Positions 41,122-58,928 of a DNA stretch of 64,000 nucleotides are shown piece by piece. Numbering within the stretch: position 1 is the stretch's first letter; each line of letters opens with the position of its first letter. The stretch spans positions 39,553-103,552 of the forward strand of contig NZ_JABKCA010000005.1 in NCBI RefSeq assembly GCF_013166655.1. The letters are read 5' to 3'. A program made the translations under genes and the position numbers. This DNA comes from Lentimicrobium sp. L6. Its GTDB lineage: Bacteria; Bacteroidota; Bacteroidia; Bacteroidales; UBA12170. The notes under the pieces were generated by a model. That model searched no databases. It saw only the letters and a list, made by a program, of their open reading frames with translations, and had not been told where the DNA came from.

Positions 41122-41607
41122 CTAAGCATCGTACTCAGCAAGAATTTCTTTAACGCCATCAGGAGCAACACGACCGTAAGTTTTTTCACCTACCAAAACC
41201 ACTGGAGCCAATCCACAAGCACCCACACAACGTAAGCTGCTCAAAGAGAATTTACCATCAGCAGTAGTTTCACCTTGTTTGATTCCTAATTCTTTTTCGA
41301 ATTCCACCATTACATTTTCTGCACCACGAACATAACAAGCTGTTCCTGTACAAATGCTAATTGGATGTTTTCCCTTAGGCTTCATGGTGAAGAAAGAATA
41401 GAATGTAACTACTCCATAAACCTTAGCTAAAGCTACATTTAAGTTCTCGCTTACTACTTCTTGCACTTCTGCAGGTAGGTAACCAAACTCGCCTTGACAT
41501 TTGTGTAAAACATTGATTAACTCACCTGGCTCGTTGCCGAAAAAGTCACAAATCTCAACGATTTTTGCGATGTCTTTTTCTTTTAATTTTATTTTAGTTT
41601 CTGACAT
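41122..41607 (-). CDS. hydC: NADH-linked [FeFe] hydrogenase subunit HydC (NuoE-like)
   Basis: The 161-residue subunit has the thioredoxin-like [2Fe-2S] fold of NuoE, with four cysteines in CTGTACYVRG and LRCVGACGLAP and the N-terminal helical bundle (LLNVLHKCQGEFGYLP type). In bifurcating hydrogenases this subunit relays electrons to HydB. It is last in the order hndB-like, hydB, hydA, hydC on the minus strand, 53 bases after hydA. Confidence 0.95.
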   Translation of the reverse strand: MSETKIKLKEKDIAKIVEICDFFGNEPGELINVLHKCQGEFGYLPAEVQEVVSENLNVALAKVYGVVTFYSFFTMKPKGKHPISICTGTACYVRGAENVMVEFEKELGIKQGETTADGKFSLSSLRCVGACGLAPVVLVGEKTYGRVAPDGVKEILAEYDA

Positions 41608-41660
41608 TTTTTCAAATTTAAATGATTCTTAATTCGTTAGATTCCTCTAGACTTTAATTA

Positions 41661-43439
41661 CTATTCTTCAATATCTCTTTTGCGTTTGCGATCGAAATAA
41701 TGAGTATGTAATAATTCGTGTGACAACTCACCACAAGGCTCACCTAAGAATGTTTCATATAATTCTTTGATAGCTGGGTTCTCATGAGATTTTCTGATTG
41801 GTTTACCAGCATCTTCACGATATAAAGCAGCAGCACGTTTCTGAAGAATCTCAGAATCGCCATGGTGTAGAGGTTGACCACCACCACCAATACATCCACC
41901 AGGACAAGCCATGATTTCAATAGCGTGGAAATGTGATTTACCATCACGAATATCATTTAATAATTTACGAGCATTTCCAAGACCATGAGCAATACCAATC
42001 TTAACTTCTAAACCATCGAAGTCAACACTACCAGCTCTGATACCTTCCATACCTCTTAATTGTTTAAGGTCAACTTTTTCTAAAGTTTTACCAGTATGAA
42101 CTTCATAAGCAGTACGAGCAGCAGCTTCAATTACACCACCTGTAGCACCAAAGATAACACCCGCTCCAGTAGATTCGCCCATTGGCTGGTCGAAATCACT
42201 TTTCTCAAGGGTATTTAAGTCCATATTAGCTTGCTTAATGAGATGAGCTAATTCGCGAGTAGAAATAGAGAAATCAACATCAGGATTTCCGTTTACTTTA
42301 AACTCGTCACGTTGAGCTTCATATTTCTTAGCTAAACAAGGCATGATAGAAACCACAACCATATCTTCGCGCTTAATTCCTAATTTTCCTGCAAAATAAG
42401 TTTTAGCAATAGGGCCAAACATTTGCTGTGGAGAACGTGCTGTTGAAGGAATGTCCTTCATATCTGGGAATTGAGTTTCGAAGAAATTAACCCAACCTGG
42501 ACAGCAAGAAGTTAATATAGGAAGTTTCACATTCTTATCACCTGCTAAATGTGCATTTAAACGACCTAATAGCTCAGTACCTTCTTCCATAATGGTAAGG
42601 TCGGCAGCAAAGTCAGTATCAAATATGTGATCGAAACCAAGACCTCTTAAAGCAGTTACCATTTGACCAGTAACTAAAGTTCCAGCTTCCATTCCAAACT
42701 CTTCACCAAGTGCAGCTCTAACAGCAGGAGCAGTTTGTACCACAACAGTTTTTGTTGGGTCGGCAATTGCTCTAATCACTTGAGGAGTGTGGTCTACTTC
42801 TGTTAATGCAGCAGTAGGACATACAGCTACACACTGCCCACAGTAAGTACAAGTACTGGCTTCTAAGTTCATTTCGAAAGCTGTACCAACAGCTGCTTCA
42901 AAACCACGGTTGATAGCAGAAAGCGCACCAACAGTTTGGACTTCGTTACACATGGTTTCGCAACGACGACACATGATACATTTATCAAGGTTACGAATAA
43001 TACTTGGAGAAGTGTCTAAACGGTATGACGACATTTCGCAAGTAGTTTCATTAGGAATTTCACGAACTCCTAATTTTTGCGCCATATCTTGCAAGTCACA
43101 ATGACCCGATTTAGAACAAGTTAAACACTCTTTTGGGTGATCACTTAAAATGAATTCCATAACAGTACGACGAGCGTTAATCACTCTCATTGTATTGGTA
43201 CGAACAACCATTCCGTCATCTGCTTTTGTAGAGCAAGAAGGAGCCAAATTTCTACGGCCTTCTACTTCTACAACACAAATTCTACAACCACCAGGTTTAT
43301 TTTCGATATCTAAATGCTCCAAATTCATGTAACACAAAATTGGGATTTCGATATTTAATTTTTTAGCTGCGTGATAAATAGTAGTACCTTTTTCTACTTC
43401 TATCACTTTATTATCTATTGTTAATTTGATCATGTCCAT
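41661..43439 (-). CDS. hydA: [FeFe] hydrogenase catalytic subunit HydA (NuoG-like N terminus)
   Basis: The 592-residue catalytic subunit carries, in order, a [2Fe-2S] NuoG-like domain (CRICVVEVEG), a His-ligated [4Fe-4S] motif (HPKECLTCSKSGHCDLQ), two ferredoxin motifs (CIMCRRCETMC, CTYCGQCVAVCP), and a complete H-cluster domain: LTSCCPGWVNFFE, IMPCLAKKYEAQ and EIMACPGGCIGGGGQP. All cubane and catalytic cysteines are present. With HydB and HydC it matches the trimeric NAD- and ferredoxin-dependent (group A3, electron-bifurcating) type. HydE/F/G maturases are not in this window. A start at 43433 is also possible. Confidence 0.97.
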   Translation of the reverse strand: MDMIKLTIDNKVIEVEKGTTIYHAAKKLNIEIPILCYMNLEHLDIENKPGGCRICVVEVEGRRNLAPSCSTKADDGMVVRTNTMRVINARRTVMEFILSDHPKECLTCSKSGHCDLQDMAQKLGVREIPNETTCEMSSYRLDTSPSIIRNLDKCIMCRRCETMCNEVQTVGALSAINRGFEAAVGTAFEMNLEASTCTYCGQCVAVCPTAALTEVDHTPQVIRAIADPTKTVVVQTAPAVRAALGEEFGMEAGTLVTGQMVTALRGLGFDHIFDTDFAADLTIMEEGTELLGRLNAHLAGDKNVKLPILTSCCPGWVNFFETQFPDMKDIPSTARSPQQMFGPIAKTYFAGKLGIKREDMVVVSIMPCLAKKYEAQRDEFKVNGNPDVDFSISTRELAHLIKQANMDLNTLEKSDFDQPMGESTGAGVIFGATGGVIEAAARTAYEVHTGKTLEKVDLKQLRGMEGIRAGSVDFDGLEVKIGIAHGLGNARKLLNDIRDGKSHFHAIEIMACPGGCIGGGGQPLHHGDSEILQKRAAALYREDAGKPIRKSHENPAIKELYETFLGEPCGELSHELLHTHYFDRKRKRDIEE

Positions 43440-43451
43440 TTTCGAGCCTCC

Positions 43452-45245
43452 TTATATTAATTCAATGGCGTTAAACTTACACTTGTCCATACATGCTCCA
43501 CATTTGATACAAATGCTTTGGTCGATGAGATGAACCTCTTTCTTTTCACCAGAAATACAACCTACAGGACAAACTCTAGCACAAGCTGTACAGCCTACAC
43601 ATTCCTCATCAATAATATTGTATTTCAATAATGACTTACACTGTCCAGCTTCACACTTATGATCTGATACGTGAGCTAAAAACTCATCATAAAAATTATC
43701 AAGCATTGATAAAACTGGATTTGGAGAAGTTTGACCTAATCCACAAAGAGAAGTATCCTTGATGACATTACTCATATTTTTAAGTAAATCTAGATCATGC
43801 ATGGTCCCTTTTCCTTCAGTAATTTTATGTAGTGTTTCGTGTAATCTTTTGTTACCAATTCTACATGGAGCACATTTACCACAAGATTCTTCAACAGTAA
43901 ATTCTAAGTAGAATTTAGCCATTGCTACCATACAATCGTCTTCATCCATAACAATCATACCACCAGACCCCATCATAGAGCCAGCTGCTATCAAGTTATC
44001 AAAGTCAATTGGAGTATCTAAATGCTTTTCCGTTAAACATCCACCAGAAGGACCACCGGTTTGAACGGCTTTAAATTTCTTGCCATCTTTAATTCCACCA
44101 CCAATTTCGAAAATAACTTCTCTTAGTGTAGTTCCCATTGGTACCTCAATAAGACCAACATTATTAATCTTACCAGCTAAAGCAAATACTTTAGTTCCTT
44201 TAGATTTTTCAGTTCCAATAGAAGAGAACCATTCAGCTCCCTTAAGGATAATCGCTGGAATGTTAGCGAAAGTCTCAACGTTATTTACGTTTGTTGGCTT
44301 TCCATTATAGCCAGATTCTGCTGGGAATGGAGGCTTAACAGTTGGTTCACCTCTATGACCTTCCATAGAATGGATAAGTGCAGTTTCTTCACCACAAACG
44401 AAAGCACCAGCTCCGTATCTTAGTGTGATATCGAAATCAAATCCAGTTCCAAGAATGTCTTTTCCTAATAAACCATATTCACGAGCTTGCTTAATAGCCA
44501 CGTGTAATCTCTCAATAGCTAGAGGATACTCAGCCCTAATATAGATAATACCTTCATCTGAACCCATGGTATAACCACAGATAGCCATAGCTTCTAATAC
44601 AGAGTGTGGGTCACCTTCTAAAATAGAACGATCCATAAAAGCACCTGGGTCACCTTCATCGGCATTACAAACTACATATTTCTTATCGGCTTCGTTTTGG
44701 GCAGCAAACTGCCATTTTAGACCAGTTGGGAATCCCCCTCCTCCTCTACCGCGAAGACCTGATTTTTTAATGATATCGATAGTTTGCTCTGGAGTATACT
44801 CTGATAATACCTTTCCTAAAGCTTCGTAACCATCGGCTGCGATATACTCATCTACCACTTCTGGATTAATGAAACCACAATTTCTTAATGCGATACGGAT
44901 TTGTTTCTTATAGAAATCCATATGCTTACTATCTGGTTCTGTTACTCCTTTATTAGGATCAACATATAATAAGCTTTCAACTTTACGACCTTTGATGATA
45001 TGCTCATCAATAATCTCAGTAACGTTCTCAGGCTTCACCTCTGTATAGAAAGTGTTGTCTGGTAACATTTTTACAATAGGCCCTTTTTCACAAAAGCCAA
45101 AACAACCGGTAATGACCACCTGAACTTCTTCGTCCAGATTTCTATATTCCAGTTCTTTCTTCATTTTTTCAACTATGGTATCGCTTTGAGAAGCACGGCA
45201 ACCTGTTCCGCCGCAAACCATCATATGCATTTTATATTCTGACAT
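43452..45245 (-). CDS. hydB: NADH-linked [FeFe] hydrogenase subunit HydB (NuoF-like)
   Basis: The 597-residue diaphorase subunit has an N-terminal [2Fe-2S] thioredoxin-like domain (VCGGTGCRASQS, ITGCFGFCEKGP), the NuoF FMN/NADH core (GLRGRGGGGFPTGLKW, CNADEGDPGAFMDR, GAGAYVCGEETAL-like GAGAFVCGEET), an iron-sulfur ESCGKCAPCRIG site, and a C-terminal pair of [4Fe-4S] motifs (CVGCTACARVCP, CIKCGACMDKC). It binds NAD(H) and is the proposed site of flavin-based bifurcation. It overlaps no neighbour and lies 12 bases before hydA. Confidence 0.97.
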   Translation of the reverse strand: MSEYKMHMMVCGGTGCRASQSDTIVEKMKKELEYRNLDEEVQVVITGCFGFCEKGPIVKMLPDNTFYTEVKPENVTEIIDEHIIKGRKVESLLYVDPNKGVTEPDSKHMDFYKKQIRIALRNCGFINPEVVDEYIAADGYEALGKVLSEYTPEQTIDIIKKSGLRGRGGGGFPTGLKWQFAAQNEADKKYVVCNADEGDPGAFMDRSILEGDPHSVLEAMAICGYTMGSDEGIIYIRAEYPLAIERLHVAIKQAREYGLLGKDILGTGFDFDITLRYGAGAFVCGEETALIHSMEGHRGEPTVKPPFPAESGYNGKPTNVNNVETFANIPAIILKGAEWFSSIGTEKSKGTKVFALAGKINNVGLIEVPMGTTLREVIFEIGGGIKDGKKFKAVQTGGPSGGCLTEKHLDTPIDFDNLIAAGSMMGSGGMIVMDEDDCMVAMAKFYLEFTVEESCGKCAPCRIGNKRLHETLHKITEGKGTMHDLDLLKNMSNVIKDTSLCGLGQTSPNPVLSMLDNFYDEFLAHVSDHKCEAGQCKSLLKYNIIDEECVGCTACARVCPVGCISGEKKEVHLIDQSICIKCGACMDKCKFNAIELI

Positions 45246-45278
45246 TAGCTTTGTTTTTCTGATTAATAAACCTATTGA

Positions 45279-45674
45279 CTATTCATTAATGTTTTGATAG
45301 TTTGGAGGAATGATACCGTCCAACAACTCACCTTGCTTGATATACTTCTCAATGATTTGGTCAGCCTTTTTCACATCAACATAACCAAAAACAATAGGAT
45401 CTTTACCAGGAACCAAAACTTCTACAGTTGGTTCAGCATAGCAATATCCCATATCGCCTACCTGAGTAGTAATACCATTTATATTTCTTTTGGCCATTTC
45501 TTCGGTGAAGTAATGATATACTTCTTTGGCTCCACTGGCGATGCCGCTAGTGGCCATACCTACTCTAATCTGGACTACTGATTCAGGATTTTCTGCGTTC
45601 TCCCTGAGTTGGATTTTCGATTGCAGTTCACTCTTCATTGCTCGTAAATCTGCTAACGTTTTAACTTTTGCCAT
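45279..45674 (-). CDS. HndB-like small protein of the hydrogenase operon, cysteine-poor
   Basis: The 131-residue protein resembles HndB-type subunits, relatives of the N-terminal thioredoxin-like [2Fe-2S] domain of HydB (VQIRVGMATSGIASGAKEV, GDMGYCYAEPTVEV). Only one cysteine remains; at the other ligand positions I see S (GMATSG) and D (VGDMG). An Fe-S cluster is thus unlikely and a structural or regulatory role more so. It is the first gene of the operon, 33 bases before hydB, behind a consensus promoter. Confidence 0.85.
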   Translation of the reverse strand: MAKVKTLADLRAMKSELQSKIQLRENAENPESVVQIRVGMATSGIASGAKEVYHYFTEEMAKRNINGITTQVGDMGYCYAEPTVEVLVPGKDPIVFGYVDVKKADQIIEKYIKQGELLDGIIPPNYQNINE

Positions 45675-46188: not shown

Positions 46189-47478
46189 ATGAAAAAACTT
46201 TTACGTTTTGCTTTTGTCATGCTGGCTGCGTTAACGATGAACACATCGTTTGCACAAACACCATTGACTGAAGCGGTGGACTTTACAGCCACCGACACAG
46301 AAGGTCACACATGGAATCTCTTCGATTTATTAGATGAAGGTAAATATGTTGTGATTGATTTTTTCTTTACTACTTGAGCGTATTGCCCAGCATCAGTACC
46401 CCTTCTCAATGCAACCTATGAACATTTTGGTTGTGGAGATTATGATGTAACAATATTATCCGTTGATAACGGAGACACAGACGCACAAGTCATTGCCTAT
46501 GATGAAAACCTAGGTGTACTTTATCCTTCAATTAGTGGAATAGATGGTGGTGGAAATGCCATCTGCTCTTCCTACCAAATTGGAGCTTACCCAACACACA
46601 TTATCATTGCTCCAGATCACACTATCATTGCACAAGACATTTGGCCTGTTTCAAGTCCCAGTGACTTTATCGATCCATTAGAAGCTGCTGGCTGTGAAGC
46701 TAACGATTGTGATGGTGGAAGTACAATGACTGCAGATTTTGAAGCAGACATGACTGATCCTTGTGCTGGAAGTACAGTAACGTTTACAAATAATTCATTT
46801 GGAGACATTACTACTTATGCTTGGGTATTCGAAGGCGGAGATCCTGCTACTTCTGATGAAGAAAACCCAGTTGTAACTTATGAAACTCCTGGAAGTTATG
46901 ATGTAACCCTTACAGTTTCTAACGACGTAGAAGAAGATGAAACTATAATGGAAGGGTATATTACTGTTATGGATTTAACTGCTAGTTTTGAAGCCGACGA
47001 AGTGGATATTTGCGATACTGAAATGATTCAGTTCTCAAGCTCCACAACTTGTTCAGAAGAATTACAGTGGACGTTTGAAGGTGGAGACCCTGCTACTTCT
47101 GATGAAGCAAACCCATCGGTCACTTATCATACTGCTGGAACTTATTCAGTGACCCTATCTGCTATAAATGGCGATAATGAAGTTGAAGTGATTGAGGAAT
47201 CTTATATCACAGTTCACAATTGTACTGGTATTGGTTCTTTAGCATTAAACAAAATGAGAATTTCTCCAAACCCAGGTGATGGAAACTTCCAAGTGAATCT
47301 TCCAAAAGCAGGTAATTTTGAAGTTCAAGTTTATGATATCGCTGGACATATAGTTTATACCACTACCTTAACTTCTGAAAACAACAACTTAAATATCTCT
47401 AATTTAACAGATGGTATTTATGTGATTAGTGCCAATAATGGCATTACTCAGTTTAAAGAAAGAGTAGTTATCAAATAA
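46189..47478 (+). CDS. Secreted thioredoxin-like selenoprotein with PKD domains and T9SS sorting domain (in-frame TGA = selenocysteine)
   Basis: The frame reads 429 residues if TGA at 46375-46377 encodes selenocysteine at position 63. Residues 1-23 are a signal peptide (FAFVMLAALTMNTSFAQ). A TlpA/redoxin-like fold follows: VVIDFFFTT-U63-AYC66-PASVPLL, so Sec replaces the first cysteine of a CxxC site; P135 in GAYPTHII is the expected cis-proline. Two PKD domains (182-262 and 265-344, each with WVFEGGDPATSDE or WTFEGGDPATSDE) and a T9SS type A sorting domain (347-429, ISPNPGDGNF to GIYVISANNG) complete it. No other stop interrupts the frame. The organism encodes SelA, SelB, SelD and tRNA-Sec nearby. 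A hairpin with GCAACC/GGTTGT arms (46411-46434) is a weak SECIS candidate. Alternative: a Cys-to-stop mutation. Confidence 0.85.
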
Positions 47479-52044: not shown

Positions 52045-53079
52045 TTAAGACACTTCCACTAAGAAATCACCCTTAGCTTTTACTTCTCCCACAACAGCAG
52101 AATGGGGATAAACTGAACTTCTCAAATCTTGAAGCATATCATTTACAGCATCTTTTGGGACACACATCAATAATCCGCCTGAGGTTTGAGCATCGTGAAT
52201 GAGCATTTTGTGCTCGTAAACTACCTCATCGCTAAAATGACAAAACTCTTCAACAAATTCTTGATTTCTAAAGCAAGCACCAGGCAAGCAACCCAGTTCT
52301 GCTAATTCGTAAGCCCCTTTGAGAAGTGGCAGCTTTTGAGTTGCCAAATGCAAACATACATTGCTAGCTAAGGCTAGTTTATAGGCATGACCTATTAAGC
52401 CAAACCCAGTAACATCAGTAGCACATTTTACATCATACTTTTGCATGATTTCGGCACCATTTTTATTCAGAAGCTTCATATTATCCAAACAAGCTTGATA
52501 ATCTTCTTGATTAACCTCCCCTATTTTTTTGCCGGCCAAAATCACACCGGCACCAATGGGCTTGGTAAGTATTAAAACATCACCTGGCTTTGCATTAGAA
52601 TTGGTAATCACTTTATCTGGATGAACCAATCCACTCACTGCCAAACCATATTTGGGCACCTTATCAGTGATGGTATGACCTCCGACTAAATAACCGCCAG
52701 ATTCAATTACTTTATCCTGACCTCCTCTAATGATTTCTTTCAATGCTTCCATAGGTTTATCAGCAGGAAACTCTAATATATTCATGGCAGTAATCACCTT
52801 GCCTCCCATGGCATAAACGTCACTCAAAGCATTGGCTGCCGCTATTTGGCCAAACTCATAAGGATCGGAACAAACTGGAGGAAAGAAATCAGTAGTTTGA
52901 ATGAGTGCCGTTTCTTCGTTTATCTTATAGACACCAGCATCATCGTGAGTACTAATATCCACCATTAATTCAGGGCCTGTAATATGAGGCAAATCGGCTA
53001 AAGCTTTATCTAATTCTTTGGCAGGAAGCTTGGCTGAGCAGCCACCTTCTTGGCCAGAAGCTAATAAATCGTAAATCAT
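52045..53079 (-). CDS. selD: Selenide, water dikinase (selenophosphate synthetase)
   Basis: SelD makes selenophosphate from selenide and ATP, the activated selenium donor for selenocysteine synthesis. The 344 residues contain EGGCSAKLPAKEL, with a catalytic cysteine (not selenocysteine) and lysine, DDAGVYKIN and TTDFFPPV, and ANALSDVYAMGG, GGHTITDKV and VTGFGLIGHA. It lies 10 bases after yedF and is co-transcribed with it from the promoter at 53728-53758. Confidence 0.96.
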   Translation of the reverse strand: MIYDLLASGQEGGCSAKLPAKELDKALADLPHITGPELMVDISTHDDAGVYKINEETALIQTTDFFPPVCSDPYEFGQIAAANALSDVYAMGGKVITAMNILEFPADKPMEALKEIIRGGQDKVIESGGYLVGGHTITDKVPKYGLAVSGLVHPDKVITNSNAKPGDVLILTKPIGAGVILAGKKIGEVNQEDYQACLDNMKLLNKNGAEIMQKYDVKCATDVTGFGLIGHAYKLALASNVCLHLATQKLPLLKGAYELAELGCLPGACFRNQEFVEEFCHFSDEVVYEHKMLIHDAQTSGGLLMCVPKDAVNDMLQDLRSSVYPHSAVVGEVKAKGDFLVEVS

Positions 53080-53089
53080 AATTTAAGTC

Positions 53090-53698
53090 TTAAGGATAAA
53101 TGATATTGCCAGCAGCTGTGATTTTCTCTAAAATATCCAGCATATTAGAAATTCGACCAACACCCACCTCATCCATTTTATTATAATATTCGAGGCAAGT
53201 ACCACAGATATGAATCTCCACACCCATCTTTTCAAGTTCTAGCAAAGGTTCTAATACAATAGAATCTTTTAAAACCAAATGAATTCCAATATTAGCAAAC
53301 ACAATAGCGGAAGGTAGTTTAGAAACATTGGGTAAAGTATTAAAAAATCCGGTTAATAGCATTTTTCCAAGCTTTTCATCACCATCTCCAAAAGTTTCTT
53401 TTTTCACACAAACCATGTAATCGCCTTTGTTTGAAGTGGGAATTTCACAATATTCTTCTGGAGTACTTTGCTCAAAGCTTCCTCCTTTTTTTACTACCAA
53501 AATCTCGTAAACTCCATTATCCTCATTTACTTGGACTTCCATTTTATTATCGGAGAGAAATCGACTCACATTAAACTTGGCACTTTCATTATCTACAAGA
53601 ATTTGTAGTGTTTCAGACTCCTCCATATCTAATAAGGCCTTTTTGGTCATGATTAAAGGCTGAGGACATAGCTTTCCTTTAGCATCTATTGTTTTCAT
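53090..53698 (-). CDS. yedF: Selenium metabolism protein YedF (TusA + DsrE domains)
   Basis: The 202 residues have an N-terminal TusA-like domain with the CPQP motif (KGKLCPQPLIMTKKAL) and a C-terminal DsrE-like part with ICGTCLEYY. This arrangement is typical of YedF-type proteins found next to selD. A role in selenium or sulfur delivery is inferred from the family and the selD neighbour. Confidence 0.93.
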   Translation of the reverse strand: MKTIDAKGKLCPQPLIMTKKALLDMEESETLQILVDNESAKFNVSRFLSDNKMEVQVNEDNGVYEILVVKKGGSFEQSTPEEYCEIPTSNKGDYMVCVKKETFGDGDEKLGKMLLTGFFNTLPNVSKLPSAIVFANIGIHLVLKDSIVLEPLLELEKMGVEIHICGTCLEYYNKMDEVGVGRISNMLDILEKITAAGNIIYP

Positions 53699-55141: not shown

Positions 55142-57103
55142 TCACATACTAAGTATTCTCAATCCAAACTCCGTAATTTGCGTCCTATAGTTTTCCTTTT
55201 TATGTTCTGAAGTAATGAGTATTTTCTCTGCTTCAAACATTTCTATCAAAAAAGGCAACATTTTCTTTGACAAACCTGTTTCCTGCTTTAGTGGTTGAAG
55301 GAATAAGCCCTCTTTATGATTGGCTAAAACCTGAAGTAATTCCTTGCGATATTTCATGACCAAAGAAGCATGGGCATATTCATTTTTATAATAACTCAGT
55401 TTACCATTTTGAATGAGGAAATCAATATAAGAAGCCAATTTGTCTTTACTTATCATTCTTTGATAGGCAGCCTGATTGATATCCACATAGATGGGTTTTT
55501 GAGGACCATAATCTTTTATAGTTTGCTCTAACCACTCTATATCTGCTTTTTCTTTTTTACTCAACTTGACTTCATGCGAAGACAAAGCCCAAGTCATAGC
55601 AATGGATTTTATATGTTTATCCTCCTCCATTTTTAATAATAAATGAGGAAGGTATTCTTTGAAAACTTTGTTTTTATTTAAACCTAACTTTCCTAGAAGT
55701 TCCAATTCGTTTAAACCCTTGGTGAGCATGGGGTTTTTCTCATGAAATTCTAGTATTAAAGCTTTTACTTTTTTAATGATTTCCCATTCCGCTATTTCCG
55801 CCATATAGATATGATTGGGATATAGAGAAATGCCTTTCAAATTTTTATCTTCTTGGAGCAAATCCTCTTCTGTCATCTTTAATTTATCTTTCAATAAATG
55901 TAGATTTAGAGGAAGGTTTTCTTTCTTAAGCTCGATGAGAATCAGCTCTGCCGTTTTTCCTTCATTGAGGATTCCATCGACGAGTAATTCCAGTGATTGG
56001 AGTAGCTTTTTGGTTCTTTTACGGTGATGCAAAGGTTTGGCATCGATGATAATTCCTCCTCCTATGCTCTTATCGCCAGAGGAGTTTCTTAAGATGAATT
56101 TATCTTTATGAATCAATACACTTTCTTTCTCCAAAACCAATTGAACTAGCCCAGACTCCCCAGGTTTGAGTTTATCTTTGTCGAGTAAATGCATCCTTGC
56201 TTGAGTATCGAAAGTACCTGAATGAAAAACTACTGTTGACCAAATACCCAAATCCACAGAATTCTCAAATAAGGTGATATAAGCATCTATCATCAAGGTA
56301 TTTTCCAATTCTTGATTACTCAAAAGCATGCCTCTTTCAAAATCATCGGGTTTTAATCCAGTCAAGTTAAAAGCGGCTCTATCTCCAGCCACCACTTTCT
56401 CCACCTTTTTTCCATGACGCTGGATTCCTCTTAATCGTAATTTATCTTTATTTCCAGGCAAGAGAAAAACCTCTTCTTCCACTTCAATTTCTCCATTTAA
56501 AACAGAACCCGTTACCACAGAACCCATTCCTTTTACCGTAAATATTCTATCGATAAACATGCGGAAGAATTGGTCTTGTTTTTGAGTTTCTATTTGAGGT
56601 ATTATATTTTCTATTTCTTGCTTCAACTCATCAAGTCCTTGTCCACTTATACTACTCACTCCTACTATTGGGGCTTCTTCAAACTCCGTTCCCTCGAGCC
56701 ACTCCATAATCTCCAGCTTGGCCAATTCAGCAATTTCTTCATCCACCAAATCAATCTTATTCAGCGCAATGATGGCTTTCTTCACTTTTAAGGCTCTGAT
56801 GATATTAAAATGTTCTTTGGTTTGTGGCATCACGCCAGAATCAGCAGCAATCACCAGTAAAACGAAGTCGATGCCACAAGCGCCTCCTACCATAGTATTT
56901 ATAAAATCTTTATGACCGGGGACATCGATAATACCCACAGAATGACCCGATGGCAAATCGATATGAGAAAATCCCAGATTGATGGTGATTCCCCTCTCCT
57001 TTTCTTCTTTGTGGGTATCACAATCTATATTTGTTAAAGCTTTAATCAGCGAAGTTTTCCCATGATCCACATGGCCCGCTGTCCCCATTATTAAATGCTT
57101 CAT
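55142..57103 (-). CDS. selB: Selenocysteine-specific translation elongation factor SelB
   Basis: The 653-residue GTPase brings Sec-tRNA to UGA codons and binds the SECIS hairpin. The G domain has GTAGHVDHGKTSL, RGITINLGF, DVPGHKDF and NKIDLVDEE. After the EF-Tu-like domains 2-3 (SVVTGSVLNGEIEVEEEVF, FERGMLLS) there are C-terminal winged-helix repeats that bind the SECIS RNA. Its ATG overlaps the selA stop by four bases, so the two are coupled. Confidence 0.97.
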   Translation of the reverse strand: MKHLIMGTAGHVDHGKTSLIKALTNIDCDTHKEEKERGITINLGFSHIDLPSGHSVGIIDVPGHKDFINTMVGGACGIDFVLLVIAADSGVMPQTKEHFNIIRALKVKKAIIALNKIDLVDEEIAELAKLEIMEWLEGTEFEEAPIVGVSSISGQGLDELKQEIENIIPQIETQKQDQFFRMFIDRIFTVKGMGSVVTGSVLNGEIEVEEEVFLLPGNKDKLRLRGIQRHGKKVEKVVAGDRAAFNLTGLKPDDFERGMLLSNQELENTLMIDAYITLFENSVDLGIWSTVVFHSGTFDTQARMHLLDKDKLKPGESGLVQLVLEKESVLIHKDKFILRNSSGDKSIGGGIIIDAKPLHHRKRTKKLLQSLELLVDGILNEGKTAELILIELKKENLPLNLHLLKDKLKMTEEDLLQEDKNLKGISLYPNHIYMAEIAEWEIIKKVKALILEFHEKNPMLTKGLNELELLGKLGLNKNKVFKEYLPHLLLKMEEDKHIKSIAMTWALSSHEVKLSKKEKADIEWLEQTIKDYGPQKPIYVDINQAAYQRMISKDKLASYIDFLIQNGKLSYYKNEYAHASLVMKYRKELLQVLANHKEGLFLQPLKQETGLSKKMLPFLIEMFEAEKILITSEHKKENYRTQITEFGLRILSM

Positions 57104-58503
57104 AAACCTAATTTTTTATATGCCTTTTTGATTAATTCGGCTACATCATCTAAATCTTTCTCTTGCAGGCAGAGTAAATCAACATATATGCTTCCACTCT
57201 TTAAATTGGTCAATAGCGCAGGCTTTTGATTCAACAATTCATGATAGAATTGTTTTCCTGTACTTTTTCCTTTTCCTAAATTTAGTTTCACAGAATAGGA
57301 ATCCAAAACTAGATCGGGTAAAGTTCCCCCACCATATTGACCTTTGCTGGGTTCTATGCTGCTAGAGATACTCTTTTTAGCCAATAAACTTTGTAAATAT
57401 TCTGAGGATTCTTTTCTTTCAAGCTTTGGTGTATTTAAGGTTCTAAAGAGCACATTATGTTTGAACAGATCCTGATCGTTGAGATAGTAAGAACAAGCCT
57501 TTTCGAGTATGGCGAGTGTGGTTTTCCCAACCCTTAAGGCGCGCATCATGGGCTCCTTTTTCAGTTTTTGGATGAACTCCTTTTTACCGGCAATTATGCC
57601 AGCCTGAGGACCACCAAGCAGCTTGTCCCCACTAAAGCAAATCATATCGACTCCTGAGGCTAAAGCTTGCTTCACGTCCGGCTCGTTCATCAAAGCCTTC
57701 TCGTCTACTTTCCTTAACAAGCCTGAGCCTATATCGTAGACTGTTGGAATATCATACTTCTTTCCCAATCCGGAGAGCTCCTCTAAAGAAAGCTCCTGAG
57801 TAAAACCTTTAATTACATAATTAGATGTATGAGTTTTAAAAAGCAAAGCTGTATTTTCATTGATGGCTTTTTCATAATCTGCCACCTTGGTTTTGTTGGT
57901 TGCTCCTACTTCTACCATTCCACAATCTGATGCCGCCATAATTTCTGGAATGCGAAAAGAACCGCCTATCTCTATCAATTCTCCTCGTGATACTATAGCT
58001 TCTTTTCCTCTACCAAAGGCTCGAAGAATCAACATAACAGCAGCGGCGTTATTATTTACTATCACTATATCTTCGGCACCGGTCAGGTATTTTAAAATTT
58101 CGCTGGCATGATCGTTTCTTTGTCCTCGGCTTCCTTTCGCCAGATTAAACTCTAGATTATTATAGCCTTTCAACACGTCGAAGACCTCCTCTAAAAGTTC
58201 TTCTCCATAGGGAGCTCTTCCGAGATTGGTATGGATAATAATTCCTGAACCATTCAATATGGGTTTCAAACTTCGCTCTGCAATTTTCTGAATACGAGAA
58301 ACACATTCTTCTCCAATATTGTCCATGTTTAAAGATTCCTCTCCAGCTAAAATCTGTCGCCGATAATTACTAATCACCTCTCGAATAACAGCAGTCACCA
58401 AGTTCTTACTGTATTTTTTAATCAACGGCTTTATGCTAGCATATTGCAAAACCTTATCTACTCCTGGGAGATTTCTTATTTGTTGGGAAGAGAAATTCGT
58501 CAT
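57100..58503 (-). CDS. selA: L-seryl-tRNA(Sec) selenium transferase
   Basis: This 467-residue PLP enzyme converts Ser-tRNA(Sec) to Sec-tRNA(Sec). Family motifs are present: IIHTNLGRAPYG, VNNNAAAVML, SRGELIEIGGSFRIPEIM, KTHTSNYVIKGF, YDIGSGLL and the PLP-binding lysine in CFSGDKLLGGPQAG (K294). The tRNA-Sec gene is 66 bases upstream on the same strand, forming the order tRNA-Sec, selA, selB. Confidence 0.97.
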   Translation of the reverse strand: MTNFSSQQIRNLPGVDKVLQYASIKPLIKKYSKNLVTAVIREVISNYRRQILAGEESLNMDNIGEECVSRIQKIAERSLKPILNGSGIIIHTNLGRAPYGEELLEEVFDVLKGYNNLEFNLAKGSRGQRNDHASEILKYLTGAEDIVIVNNNAAAVMLILRAFGRGKEAIVSRGELIEIGGSFRIPEIMAASDCGMVEVGATNKTKVADYEKAINENTALLFKTHTSNYVIKGFTQELSLEELSGLGKKYDIPTVYDIGSGLLRKVDEKALMNEPDVKQALASGVDMICFSGDKLLGGPQAGIIAGKKEFIQKLKKEPMMRALRVGKTTLAILEKACSYYLNDQDLFKHNVLFRTLNTPKLERKESSEYLQSLLAKKSISSSIEPSKGQYGGGTLPDLVLDSYSVKLNLGKGKSTGKQFYHELLNQKPALLTNLKSGSIYVDLLCLQEKDLDDVAELIKKAYKKLGL

Positions 58504-58569
58504 ATTGATAGCTTATTAATAAGAAAAGAAGAACACAATACTTCAATAATGGGGAAATACAAAATTAGC

Positions 58570-58659
58570 CGAGAGGGCAGGAATCGAACCTGCCACAGCC
58601 GGTTTTATCCGTCTGCTACCGGTGTTGAAGACCGGGTGAAACACCAGTTCCGTCCCCTC
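58570..58659 (-). tRNA. selC: tRNA-Sec (anticodon UCA)
   Basis: About 90 bases on the minus strand fold as a tRNA with a long variable arm. The anticodon stem CCGGT/ACCGG holds loop CTTCAAC with UCA anticodon at 58628-58626. The variable stem is CAGACGG/CCGGCTG with one mismatch, the T-arm is GCAGG-TTCGATT-CCTGC. The acceptor GAGGGGAC pairs with GCCCTCTC with one G-T wobble and one A-C mismatch, followed by discriminator G at 58570. CCA is not encoded. Exact ends are uncertain by a base or two because of the imperfect acceptor. Confidence 0.88.
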
Positions 58660-58928
58660 TGTATAATCAAGACATCAATAATACAATTTTTTTTGGCTAG
58701 GGTTGTCTACTTTGTGAAATATTTTAGAAAGTATTAGAAAATCATAAAAACAGAGCCTTGTATATGAGCACGTTACCATTTTGCCTGATTAATAAGTAGA
58801 TTTAAACTCTAATTAAGAATTACTCCAAGAAAAAAAGAAAATAAAAATTAAAAAAGCCTCCCTTAAGCTGAATATGGATTTAAAAAGTCAAGCTTAGGGT
58901 CCTGATTTGAGCCTTTATCACTTTTTTT

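What the first reader, a model, noticed from the sequence alone, without database searches (positions are those of the whole stretch)
46189..47478. Hidden secreted selenoprotein: Sec in a thioredoxin-like UxxC site fused to PKD domains and a T9SS sorting domain
An in-frame TGA (46375-46377) replaces the first cysteine of the CxxC motif (FFFTT-U-AYCP). The frame then stays open through the rest of the redoxin fold, two PKD domains and a T9SS sorting domain. A Cys-containing consensus (DFFFTTCxxC) is what I expect of relatives. The window also carries selA, selB, selD, yedF and tRNA-Sec. A selenoprotein exported by the type IX route would be unusual: selenocysteine would act outside the cell, on a protein whose secretion signal is at the far C terminus, so only full read-through of UGA gives a sorted product.
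Basis: partly seen in the sequence, partly recalled or inferred. Interest (0 to 1): 0.94.

Follow-up and report, generated by a model that had tools for sequence, protein, structure and literature searches.

The report
Surface-sorted selenoprotein of Bacteroidales
A gene in this Bacteroidales-like genome, and 35 related genes, carries a UGA stop codon exactly where other members of its family have the first cysteine of a redox site, so it is very likely read as selenocysteine in an enzyme that is predicted to be displayed on the cell surface by the type IX secretion system.

Summary
Frame 46189-47478 has one in-frame stop, TGA at 46375-46377, at the first position of the CxxC-type site (U-AYC) of a TlpA/ResA-like redoxin, followed by PKD domains and a T9SS type A sorting domain. 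It is not a lone oddity. Over 393 genomes of the order, 25 family matches (19 genomes) contain one in-frame TGA, and all 25 have it at this column; with one near relative and ten named-genome genes there are 36 distinct TGA genes, while relatives have Cys. TGA genomes carry selA in 16 of 19 cases, other genomes in 26 of 374. For nine TGA genes a sel gene or tRNA-Sec lies within 0.5 kb; 0 of 65 Cys loci hold a sel gene. Codons after the TGA are under purifying selection, and 33 of 34 Sec proteins scanned match the sorting domain. A sister clade has a covarying hairpin 21 nt after UGA that Cys relatives lack; the window's own gene fits neither it nor the published bSECIS model. UxxC redoxin selenoproteins are a known kind; a T9SS-sorted one linked to the sel locus I did not find in eight literature searches. 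Selenium insertion, secretion and substrate are untested.

The parts
46189..47478 (+). Open frame with one TGA: predicted Sec-containing T9SS-sorted redoxin, 429 residues
   Evidence: dN 0.10 and dS 1.13 after the TGA against G003
46189..46254 (+). Likely N-terminal signal peptide (residues 1-22)
   Evidence: Judged by eye from the translation; no signal-peptide predictor was run
46270..46629 (+). Redoxin domain of TlpA/ResA type (residues 28-147)
   Evidence: AhpC-TSA 49.3 bits, cut-off 26; model matches ResA 1su9, TM-score 0.88 over the target
46375..46377 (+). In-frame TGA, predicted Sec63, at the first Cys column of the CxxC-type site
46384..46386 (+). Cys66, second residue of the UxxC pair
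   Evidence: Cys in all 121 aligned rows
46765..46941 (+). First PKD domain (residues 193-251)
   Evidence: PKD 73.9 bits over 2 stretches, best 193-251
46990..47214 (+). Second PKD domain, approximate limits
   Evidence: Second Pfam stretch counted but not placed; limits taken from strands 267-342 of the model
47260..47472 (+). T9SS type A sorting domain (residues 358-428)
   Evidence: PF18962 45.6 bits, cut-off 27; TIGR04183 43.8 bits, cut-off 23
52045..53079 (-). selD (Cys form, by eye)
   Evidence: TIGR00476 368.9 bits, cut-off 125
53090..53698 (-). yedF
   Evidence: TIGR03527 203.3 bits, cut-off 110
55142..57103 (-). selB
   Evidence: TIGR00475 327.1 bits, cut-off 242.25
57100..58503 (-). 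selA
   Evidence: TIGR00474 521.8 bits, cut-off 267.9
58568..58660 (-). tRNA-Sec, anticodon TCA
   Evidence: ARAGORN; Rfam RF01852 53.4 bits, cut-off 47

Best explanation
The gene very likely makes a selenoprotein: its UGA, which stands at the column of the family's first active-site cysteine, is predicted to be read as selenocysteine, and the full-length product would be displayed at the cell surface by the type IX secretion system and work there as a thiol-disulfide oxidoreductase. Steps. (1) Inferred: tRNA-Sec, SelA, SelB and SelD, all encoded in the same window, insert Sec63 at the UGA. (2) Inferred: the protein crosses the inner membrane by its signal peptide; since the sorting domain lies after the UGA, only the read-through product can be taken up by T9SS, trimmed and left at the surface. 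(3) Inferred from fold and motif: Sec63 attacks and Cys66 resolves, reducing or isomerising disulfides or other oxidised thiols outside the outer membrane, with the PKD domains as spacers. (4) The electron donor is unknown; small thiols or sulfide of anoxic habitats are my guess. Shown here: UGA at the Cys column in 36 genes, the link to Sec genes, selection on the frame after the UGA, the predicted fold and the sorting domain.
For: 25 of 25 in-frame TGA matches in 19 of 393 genomes sit on this column; 15 of 80 named loci likewise. selA in 16 of 19 TGA genomes against 26 of 374 others. Among 60 near genomes the seven with tRNA-Sec(TCA) are the seven with selA; 5 of 7 have the TGA gene, 1 of 53 others does. 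Nine TGA genes lie within 0.5 kb of a sel gene or tRNA-Sec, three in the order tRNA-Sec, selA, selB, gene; 0 of 65 Cys loci hold selA, selB, selD or yedF. dN below dS after the TGA in 5 of 5 pairs. Sorting domain in 33 of 34 Sec proteins scanned; SprA in the genome. Sec genes more structured over +3..+48 than Cys genes (36 against 94, p 7e-6) and a covarying hairpin in 13 Sec genes, absent in 19 Cys relatives. ResA-like fold.
Against: No hairpin of the window's gene meets the published bSECIS model, and that model passes 3 of 26 Sec and 12 of 37 Cys genes; the window's own +3..+48 stretch is not unusually structured (z 0.3) and RNAalifold on 16 Sec genes that include it gave no structure. In the 13-gene hairpin the number of pairs with change on both sides (2) is not exceptional (159 of 500 shuffles). 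Three TGA genomes lack selA over cut-off: G043, G154, G244. The two closest database relatives have Trp at the column. The folding p-values and Fisher test are not corrected for kinship. No protein data; surface display and activity untested; no electron source outside the outer membrane is known to me.
Confidence: 0.75

Rival explanations
1. It is a selenoprotein, but it stays in the periplasm and works there like ordinary TlpA/ResA proteins; the sorting domain is not used or only anchors it.
For: The domain's nearest solved relatives are ResA-type proteins, which work on the outer face of the inner membrane (recalled), where reductant is at hand.
Against: The sorting domain is kept in 33 of 34 Sec relatives, scores over two curated cut-offs here, and the genome has SprA.
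Confidence: 0.12
2. The UGA is read through, but by another residue (Trp by a near-cognate tRNA, or Cys), not Sec.
For: Trp at the column in P0002 and P0003; no SECIS in the window's gene by the published model.
Against: Cys in 118 of 120 listed homologues; TGA genes go with selA and tRNA-Sec and sit beside them; 7 of 41 other ORFs end in TGA. The Trp may come from gene callers that read TGA by code 4 (inference).
Confidence: 0.06
3. The TGA is an assembly error or a nonsense mutation in a decaying gene, and the protein ends after 62 residues.
For: A single stop in an otherwise open frame would look like this in one genome taken alone; G002 has TGAs elsewhere in a relative without selA.
Against: The same codon at the same column in 36 genes from many assemblies; dN 0.10 against dS 1.13 over 365 codons after the TGA.
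Confidence: 0.02

Closest known systems
UxxC redoxin (PF08534) and Prx-like thiol:disulfide oxidoreductase (PF00578) selenoproteins, Table 1 of PMC13188914
   Same: Same domain families (both over Pfam cut-off here) and the UxxC motif with one Sec
   Different: The table names no type IX sorting domain, PKD domains or Bacteroidota; terms T9SS, Bacteroid, secret and periplasm occur 0 times in that text
HBP35 of Porphyromonas gingivalis
   Same: Thioredoxin-like motif plus conserved C-terminal domain, found on the cell surface, thioredoxin activity that needs two Cys (PMC2907840 abstract; passages of PMC10202324)
   Different: Cys, not Sec; hemin binding; sequence kinship to this redoxin was not tested
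ResA / TlpA thiol-disulfide oxidoreductases
   Same: Fold (TM-score 0.88 over target), active-site Cys pair and Pro of the PT loop aligned
   Different: No Sec, no PKD or sorting domain in the solved domains; membrane-bound facing the periplasm or outside in Gram-positives (recalled)
Predicted exported selenoproteins of marine surveys (MucD-like protease, trypsin-like protease)
   Same: Predicted Sec in proteins called secreted (passages of PMC2398784)
   Different: Unrelated proteins, no type IX sorting domain mentioned in the passages seen

Membership tests
Bacterial selenoprotein | In-frame UGA at a conserved redox Cys column, with Cys homologues | tested here: met
   118 of 120 listed homologues Cys; 25 of 25 TGA matches at the column
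Bacterial selenoprotein | selA, selB, selD and tRNA-Sec in the same genome | tested here: met
Bacterial selenoprotein | Coding sequence after the UGA conserved as protein | tested here: met
Bacterial selenoprotein | SECIS hairpin after the UGA | tested here: inconclusive
   The published G-loop model is not met in the window's gene, but that model's authors say some genes do not fit it; a covarying hairpin exists in 13 sister-clade genes, not shown for the window
Bacterial selenoprotein | Selenium in the protein | not testable with these tools
   Needs 75Se or mass spectrometry
TlpA/ResA-like thiol-disulfide oxidoreductase | Thioredoxin fold of ResA type with paired active-site residues and the Pro of the PT loop | tested here: met
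TlpA/ResA-like thiol-disulfide oxidoreductase | Disulfide reductase or oxidase activity | not testable with these tools
   Needs purified protein
T9SS type A cargo | C-terminal type A sorting domain over curated cut-off | tested here: met
   33 of 34 Sec relatives
T9SS type A cargo | T9SS machinery in the genome | tested here: met
   SprA, 2657.6 bits over a cut-off of 200; other components not searched
T9SS type A cargo | N-terminal signal peptide | not tested
   Seen by eye in the translation; no predictor run
T9SS type A cargo | Actual secretion or surface display | not testable with these tools
   Needs cell fractionation

The most novel reading that the evidence does not exclude
In this branch of Bacteroidota the selenocysteine system is kept, and handed on, mainly to arm the outer surface of the cell: a T9SS-displayed selenol enzyme is the chief client of the sel locus, is co-transcribed with selA-selB in some lineages, and uses its own class of SECIS hairpin that lacks the loop guanosine.
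Probability: 0.3. Interest if true: 0.87.

Novelty: new variant of a known kind. Interest (0 to 1): 0.72.

Why it matters
It would put selenocysteine chemistry on the outside of the cell through a secretion route whose signal lies after the recoded codon, so that every copy reaching the surface must have passed the UGA. A standard gene call breaks this gene at the TGA, so such proteins are easy to miss in databases. The neighbourhood with selA-selB also offers a testable reason why some anaerobic Bacteroidales keep the Sec system.

Tried and rejected
Published bSECIS model (G in the first two loop positions, 16-37 nt from the UGA, -7.5 kcal/mol; section 5 of PMC13188914): 3 of 26 Sec genes and 12 of 37 Cys genes pass, and the window's gene has no candidate at all. 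Folding of other stretches: +12..+72 weak (p 0.03), +18..+66 no difference (p 0.85). Inverted repeats around the TGA: one palindrome beyond it, nothing of use. RNAalifold on 16 Sec genes including the window: no structure; the hairpin is claimed for the 13-gene sister clade only.

Sec formate dehydrogenase as the reason for the sel locus: 5 molybdopterin-domain matches in the own genome, none with a stop inside. Other selenoprotein families were not searched there, so I cannot say that this is the only selenoprotein.

Beyond the order: 10 of 395 genomes sampled from the phylum (the own genome among them) have the family at E 1e-20, and only the window's gene has a TGA. The genome searches score only a limited number of candidates per genome (9), so counts are lower bounds.

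Tree of 129 domains, quick method: 35 Sec rows (two Sec genes under 130 aa dropped, one gene entered twice), one Cys row of another subfamily and all rows with neither Cys nor TGA left out; 10 changes between Sec and Cys, at least 4 forced by well-supported branches. Direction cannot be told.

Rfam tRNA-Sec alone is unspecific: it matches in 60 of 60 genomes, over cut-off in 17, of which ARAGORN tRNA-Sec and 10 tRNA-Ser. Sub-threshold matches, those of G043 and G002 among them, were not looked at.

Literature: eight searches. Papers seen: PMC13188914 abstract, sections 5 and 9, parts 1-2 of 3 of section 7, and passages; PMC12013277 term counts only, all zero; PMC10202324, PMC5029168 and PMC2398784 passages; PMC2907840 abstract and outline; the rest listings only. 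The library lacks most subscription papers.

Full report
What is in the sequence. The frame 46189-47478 has a single stop, TGA at 46375-46377, and otherwise reads 429 residues: a likely signal peptide (by eye), a redoxin domain, two PKD stretches and a type A T9SS sorting domain. The TGA is at the first position of the active-site motif, FFFTT-U-AYC. The window also encodes SelD, YedF, SelB and SelA, each over its curated cut-off, and tRNA-Sec with anticodon TCA. TGA ends 7 of 41 other ORFs of 100 aa or more, so it is still a stop here.

The column. Of 240 homologues found with the redoxin part, the 120 listed were aligned: 118 have Cys at the TGA column and two, the closest (P0002 and P0003, 79 and 76% identical), have Trp; all have the second Cys. 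Trp may be TGA read with code 4 by a gene caller; that is inference, since their DNA could not be fetched.

The family. A profile of 13 domains was run over 393 genomes of the order at E 1e-20: 97 genomes have matches; the only stops inside matches are single TGAs, in 25 matches from 19 genomes. All 25 were fetched, and in each the TGA is at the first position of the motif. G003, outside that sample, adds one. The same 60-genome search shows one exception: a G002 relative with Cys at this column and two TGAs further on. A scan of named genomes kept the best 80 of 194 loci: 15 have TGA and 65 Cys at the column; ten of the 15 are not among the others. That makes 36 distinct TGA genes (36 distinct stretches around the codon). 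Of 34 Sec proteins scanned (two cut short at a contig or locus end were left out, and one kept row, L017, is also cut), 33 match Por_Secre_tail, 29 AhpC-TSA and 24 PKD_4.

Link to the Sec system. Among 60 near genomes, seven have a tRNA-Sec confirmed by its TCA anticodon, and the same seven have selA over cut-off. Five of the seven have a TGA gene at this column, against one of the other 53, G043. In the order-wide set selA is over cut-off in 42 of 393 genomes: 16 of the 19 TGA genomes and 26 of 374 others (Fisher p 1e-14, not corrected for kinship). Exceptions: G043 (95% complete), G154 (97%) and G244 (76%). Neighbours: L179, L181 and L182 read tRNA-Sec, selA, selB, then the gene on the same strand (gap 126 bp in L179); in L111 (G009), L128 and L137 the gene faces selD; in L098 (G167) and L101 (G273) it follows selD on the same strand; in L108 (G041) it lies about 0.5 kb from tRNA-Sec. 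In the window it is 4.6 kb from selD, with four ORFs between. Among the 80 named loci, 6 of 15 TGA loci and 0 of 65 Cys loci hold selA, selB, selD or yedF. Most unnamed loci have flanks of 1-2 kb, too short to show one.

Selection. Between the window and G003 the 365 codons after the TGA have dN 0.10 and dS 1.13, with 149 of 225 differences at third positions; in four further pairs dN is also below dS. The stretch after the stop is kept as protein.

RNA. The published bSECIS model is not met by the window's gene and does not separate Sec from Cys genes (3 of 26 against 12 of 37). Yet Sec genes are more structured right after the codon than Cys genes with the encoded protein held fixed: mean z -1.33 against -0.18 over +3..+48 for 36 and 94 genes, p 7e-6 (first seen with 26 and 37 genes); over +3..+63 the p is 0.03, and over +18..+66 there is no difference. 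In 13 Sec genes of the clade next to the window's, RNAalifold finds a 7-pair hairpin whose 9-nt loop begins 21 nt after the UGA. There 91% of cells pair (0 of 500 shuffles reach this; slid versions reach at most 45%), 7 cells change on both sides (0 of 500), but the number of pairs with such a change, 2, is not exceptional (159 of 500). In 19 Cys relatives the same structure pairs in 38% of cells and no structure is predicted. The loop lacks the guanosine of the published model. The window's own gene is not unusually structured there (z 0.3), and adding it and two relatives to the 13 gives no common structure.

Fold and likely work. An AlphaFold2 model from 28 sequences (mean pLDDT 85, pTM 0.45) matches ResA best (1su9, TM-score 0.88 over the target); by sequence, residue 63 lies over the first ResA Cys and P135 over the Pro of its PT loop. 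Residues 63, 66, P135 and C174 are invariant in 34 Sec proteins (Sec written as C). So the domain is read as a thiol-disulfide oxidoreductase with Sec attacking. The genome has SprA, and the sorting domain lies after the UGA, so a surface copy must have been read through. Surface location, activity and partner are inferred. The genome also keeps Cys relatives: six matches, one with TGA.

Evolution. On a quick tree of 129 domains Sec and Cys change places at least 10 times on the tree drawn, 4 if only well-supported branches count. The family is nearly confined to the order (10 of 395 genomes sampled from the phylum).

Compared with what is known. PMC13188914 lists 119 selenoprotein families and subfamilies, among them UxxC redoxin and Prx-like oxidoreductases; T9SS, Bacteroid, secret and periplasm occur 0 times in its text. 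By plan the closest is HBP35 of P. gingivalis, a surface protein with thioredoxin activity and a T9SS-type C-terminal domain, with two Cys (abstract of PMC2907840; passages of PMC10202324). Marine surveys list other predicted exported selenoproteins (passages of PMC2398784). One paper holds both 'selenoprotein' and 'type IX secretion', on rabbit diet. I call this a new variant of a known kind: the UxxC redoxin selenoprotein is known, its T9SS sorting and its place beside selA-selB are what I did not find in print.

Noticed in passing
L024 (G002:C187:30971-31486, minus strand): Relative with Cys at the usual column but TGATGA at the conserved Cys further on (FG-UU-DFD against FGCGDYD in the window); G002 has neither selA nor a tRNA-Sec over cut-off. 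Decay or a second Sec site after loss of the machinery are both open.
   Followed up: partly
P0002, P0003 (database proteins): The two closest relatives have Trp at the TGA column; probably TGA read by code 4 in gene calling, not provable from the protein.
   Followed up: partly
G043, G154, G244: TGA genes at the column in genomes without selA over cut-off: missing contigs, contamination, or loss of the Sec system.
   Followed up: no
L013/L025 (G037:C69:12827-14192): A Cys gene and a Sec gene of the family lie in tandem.
   Followed up: no
L143, L147, L151 and other named loci: Long relatives carry a second redoxin-like domain in which the active-site Cys column is Asp, so the second copy may have lost redox function.
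   Followed up: no
L017, L089, L092, L093 (G043, G156): Sec genes with a short hairpin 18 nt after the UGA and a loop that begins with G (GCAAC or GCACC), closer to the published bSECIS model.
   Followed up: partly
window 41122-45674, minus strand: Divergent neighbour genes include an NADH-dependent group A6 [FeFe] hydrogenase (NF040763 over cut-off), which suggests an anaerobic fermenter.
   Followed up: partly
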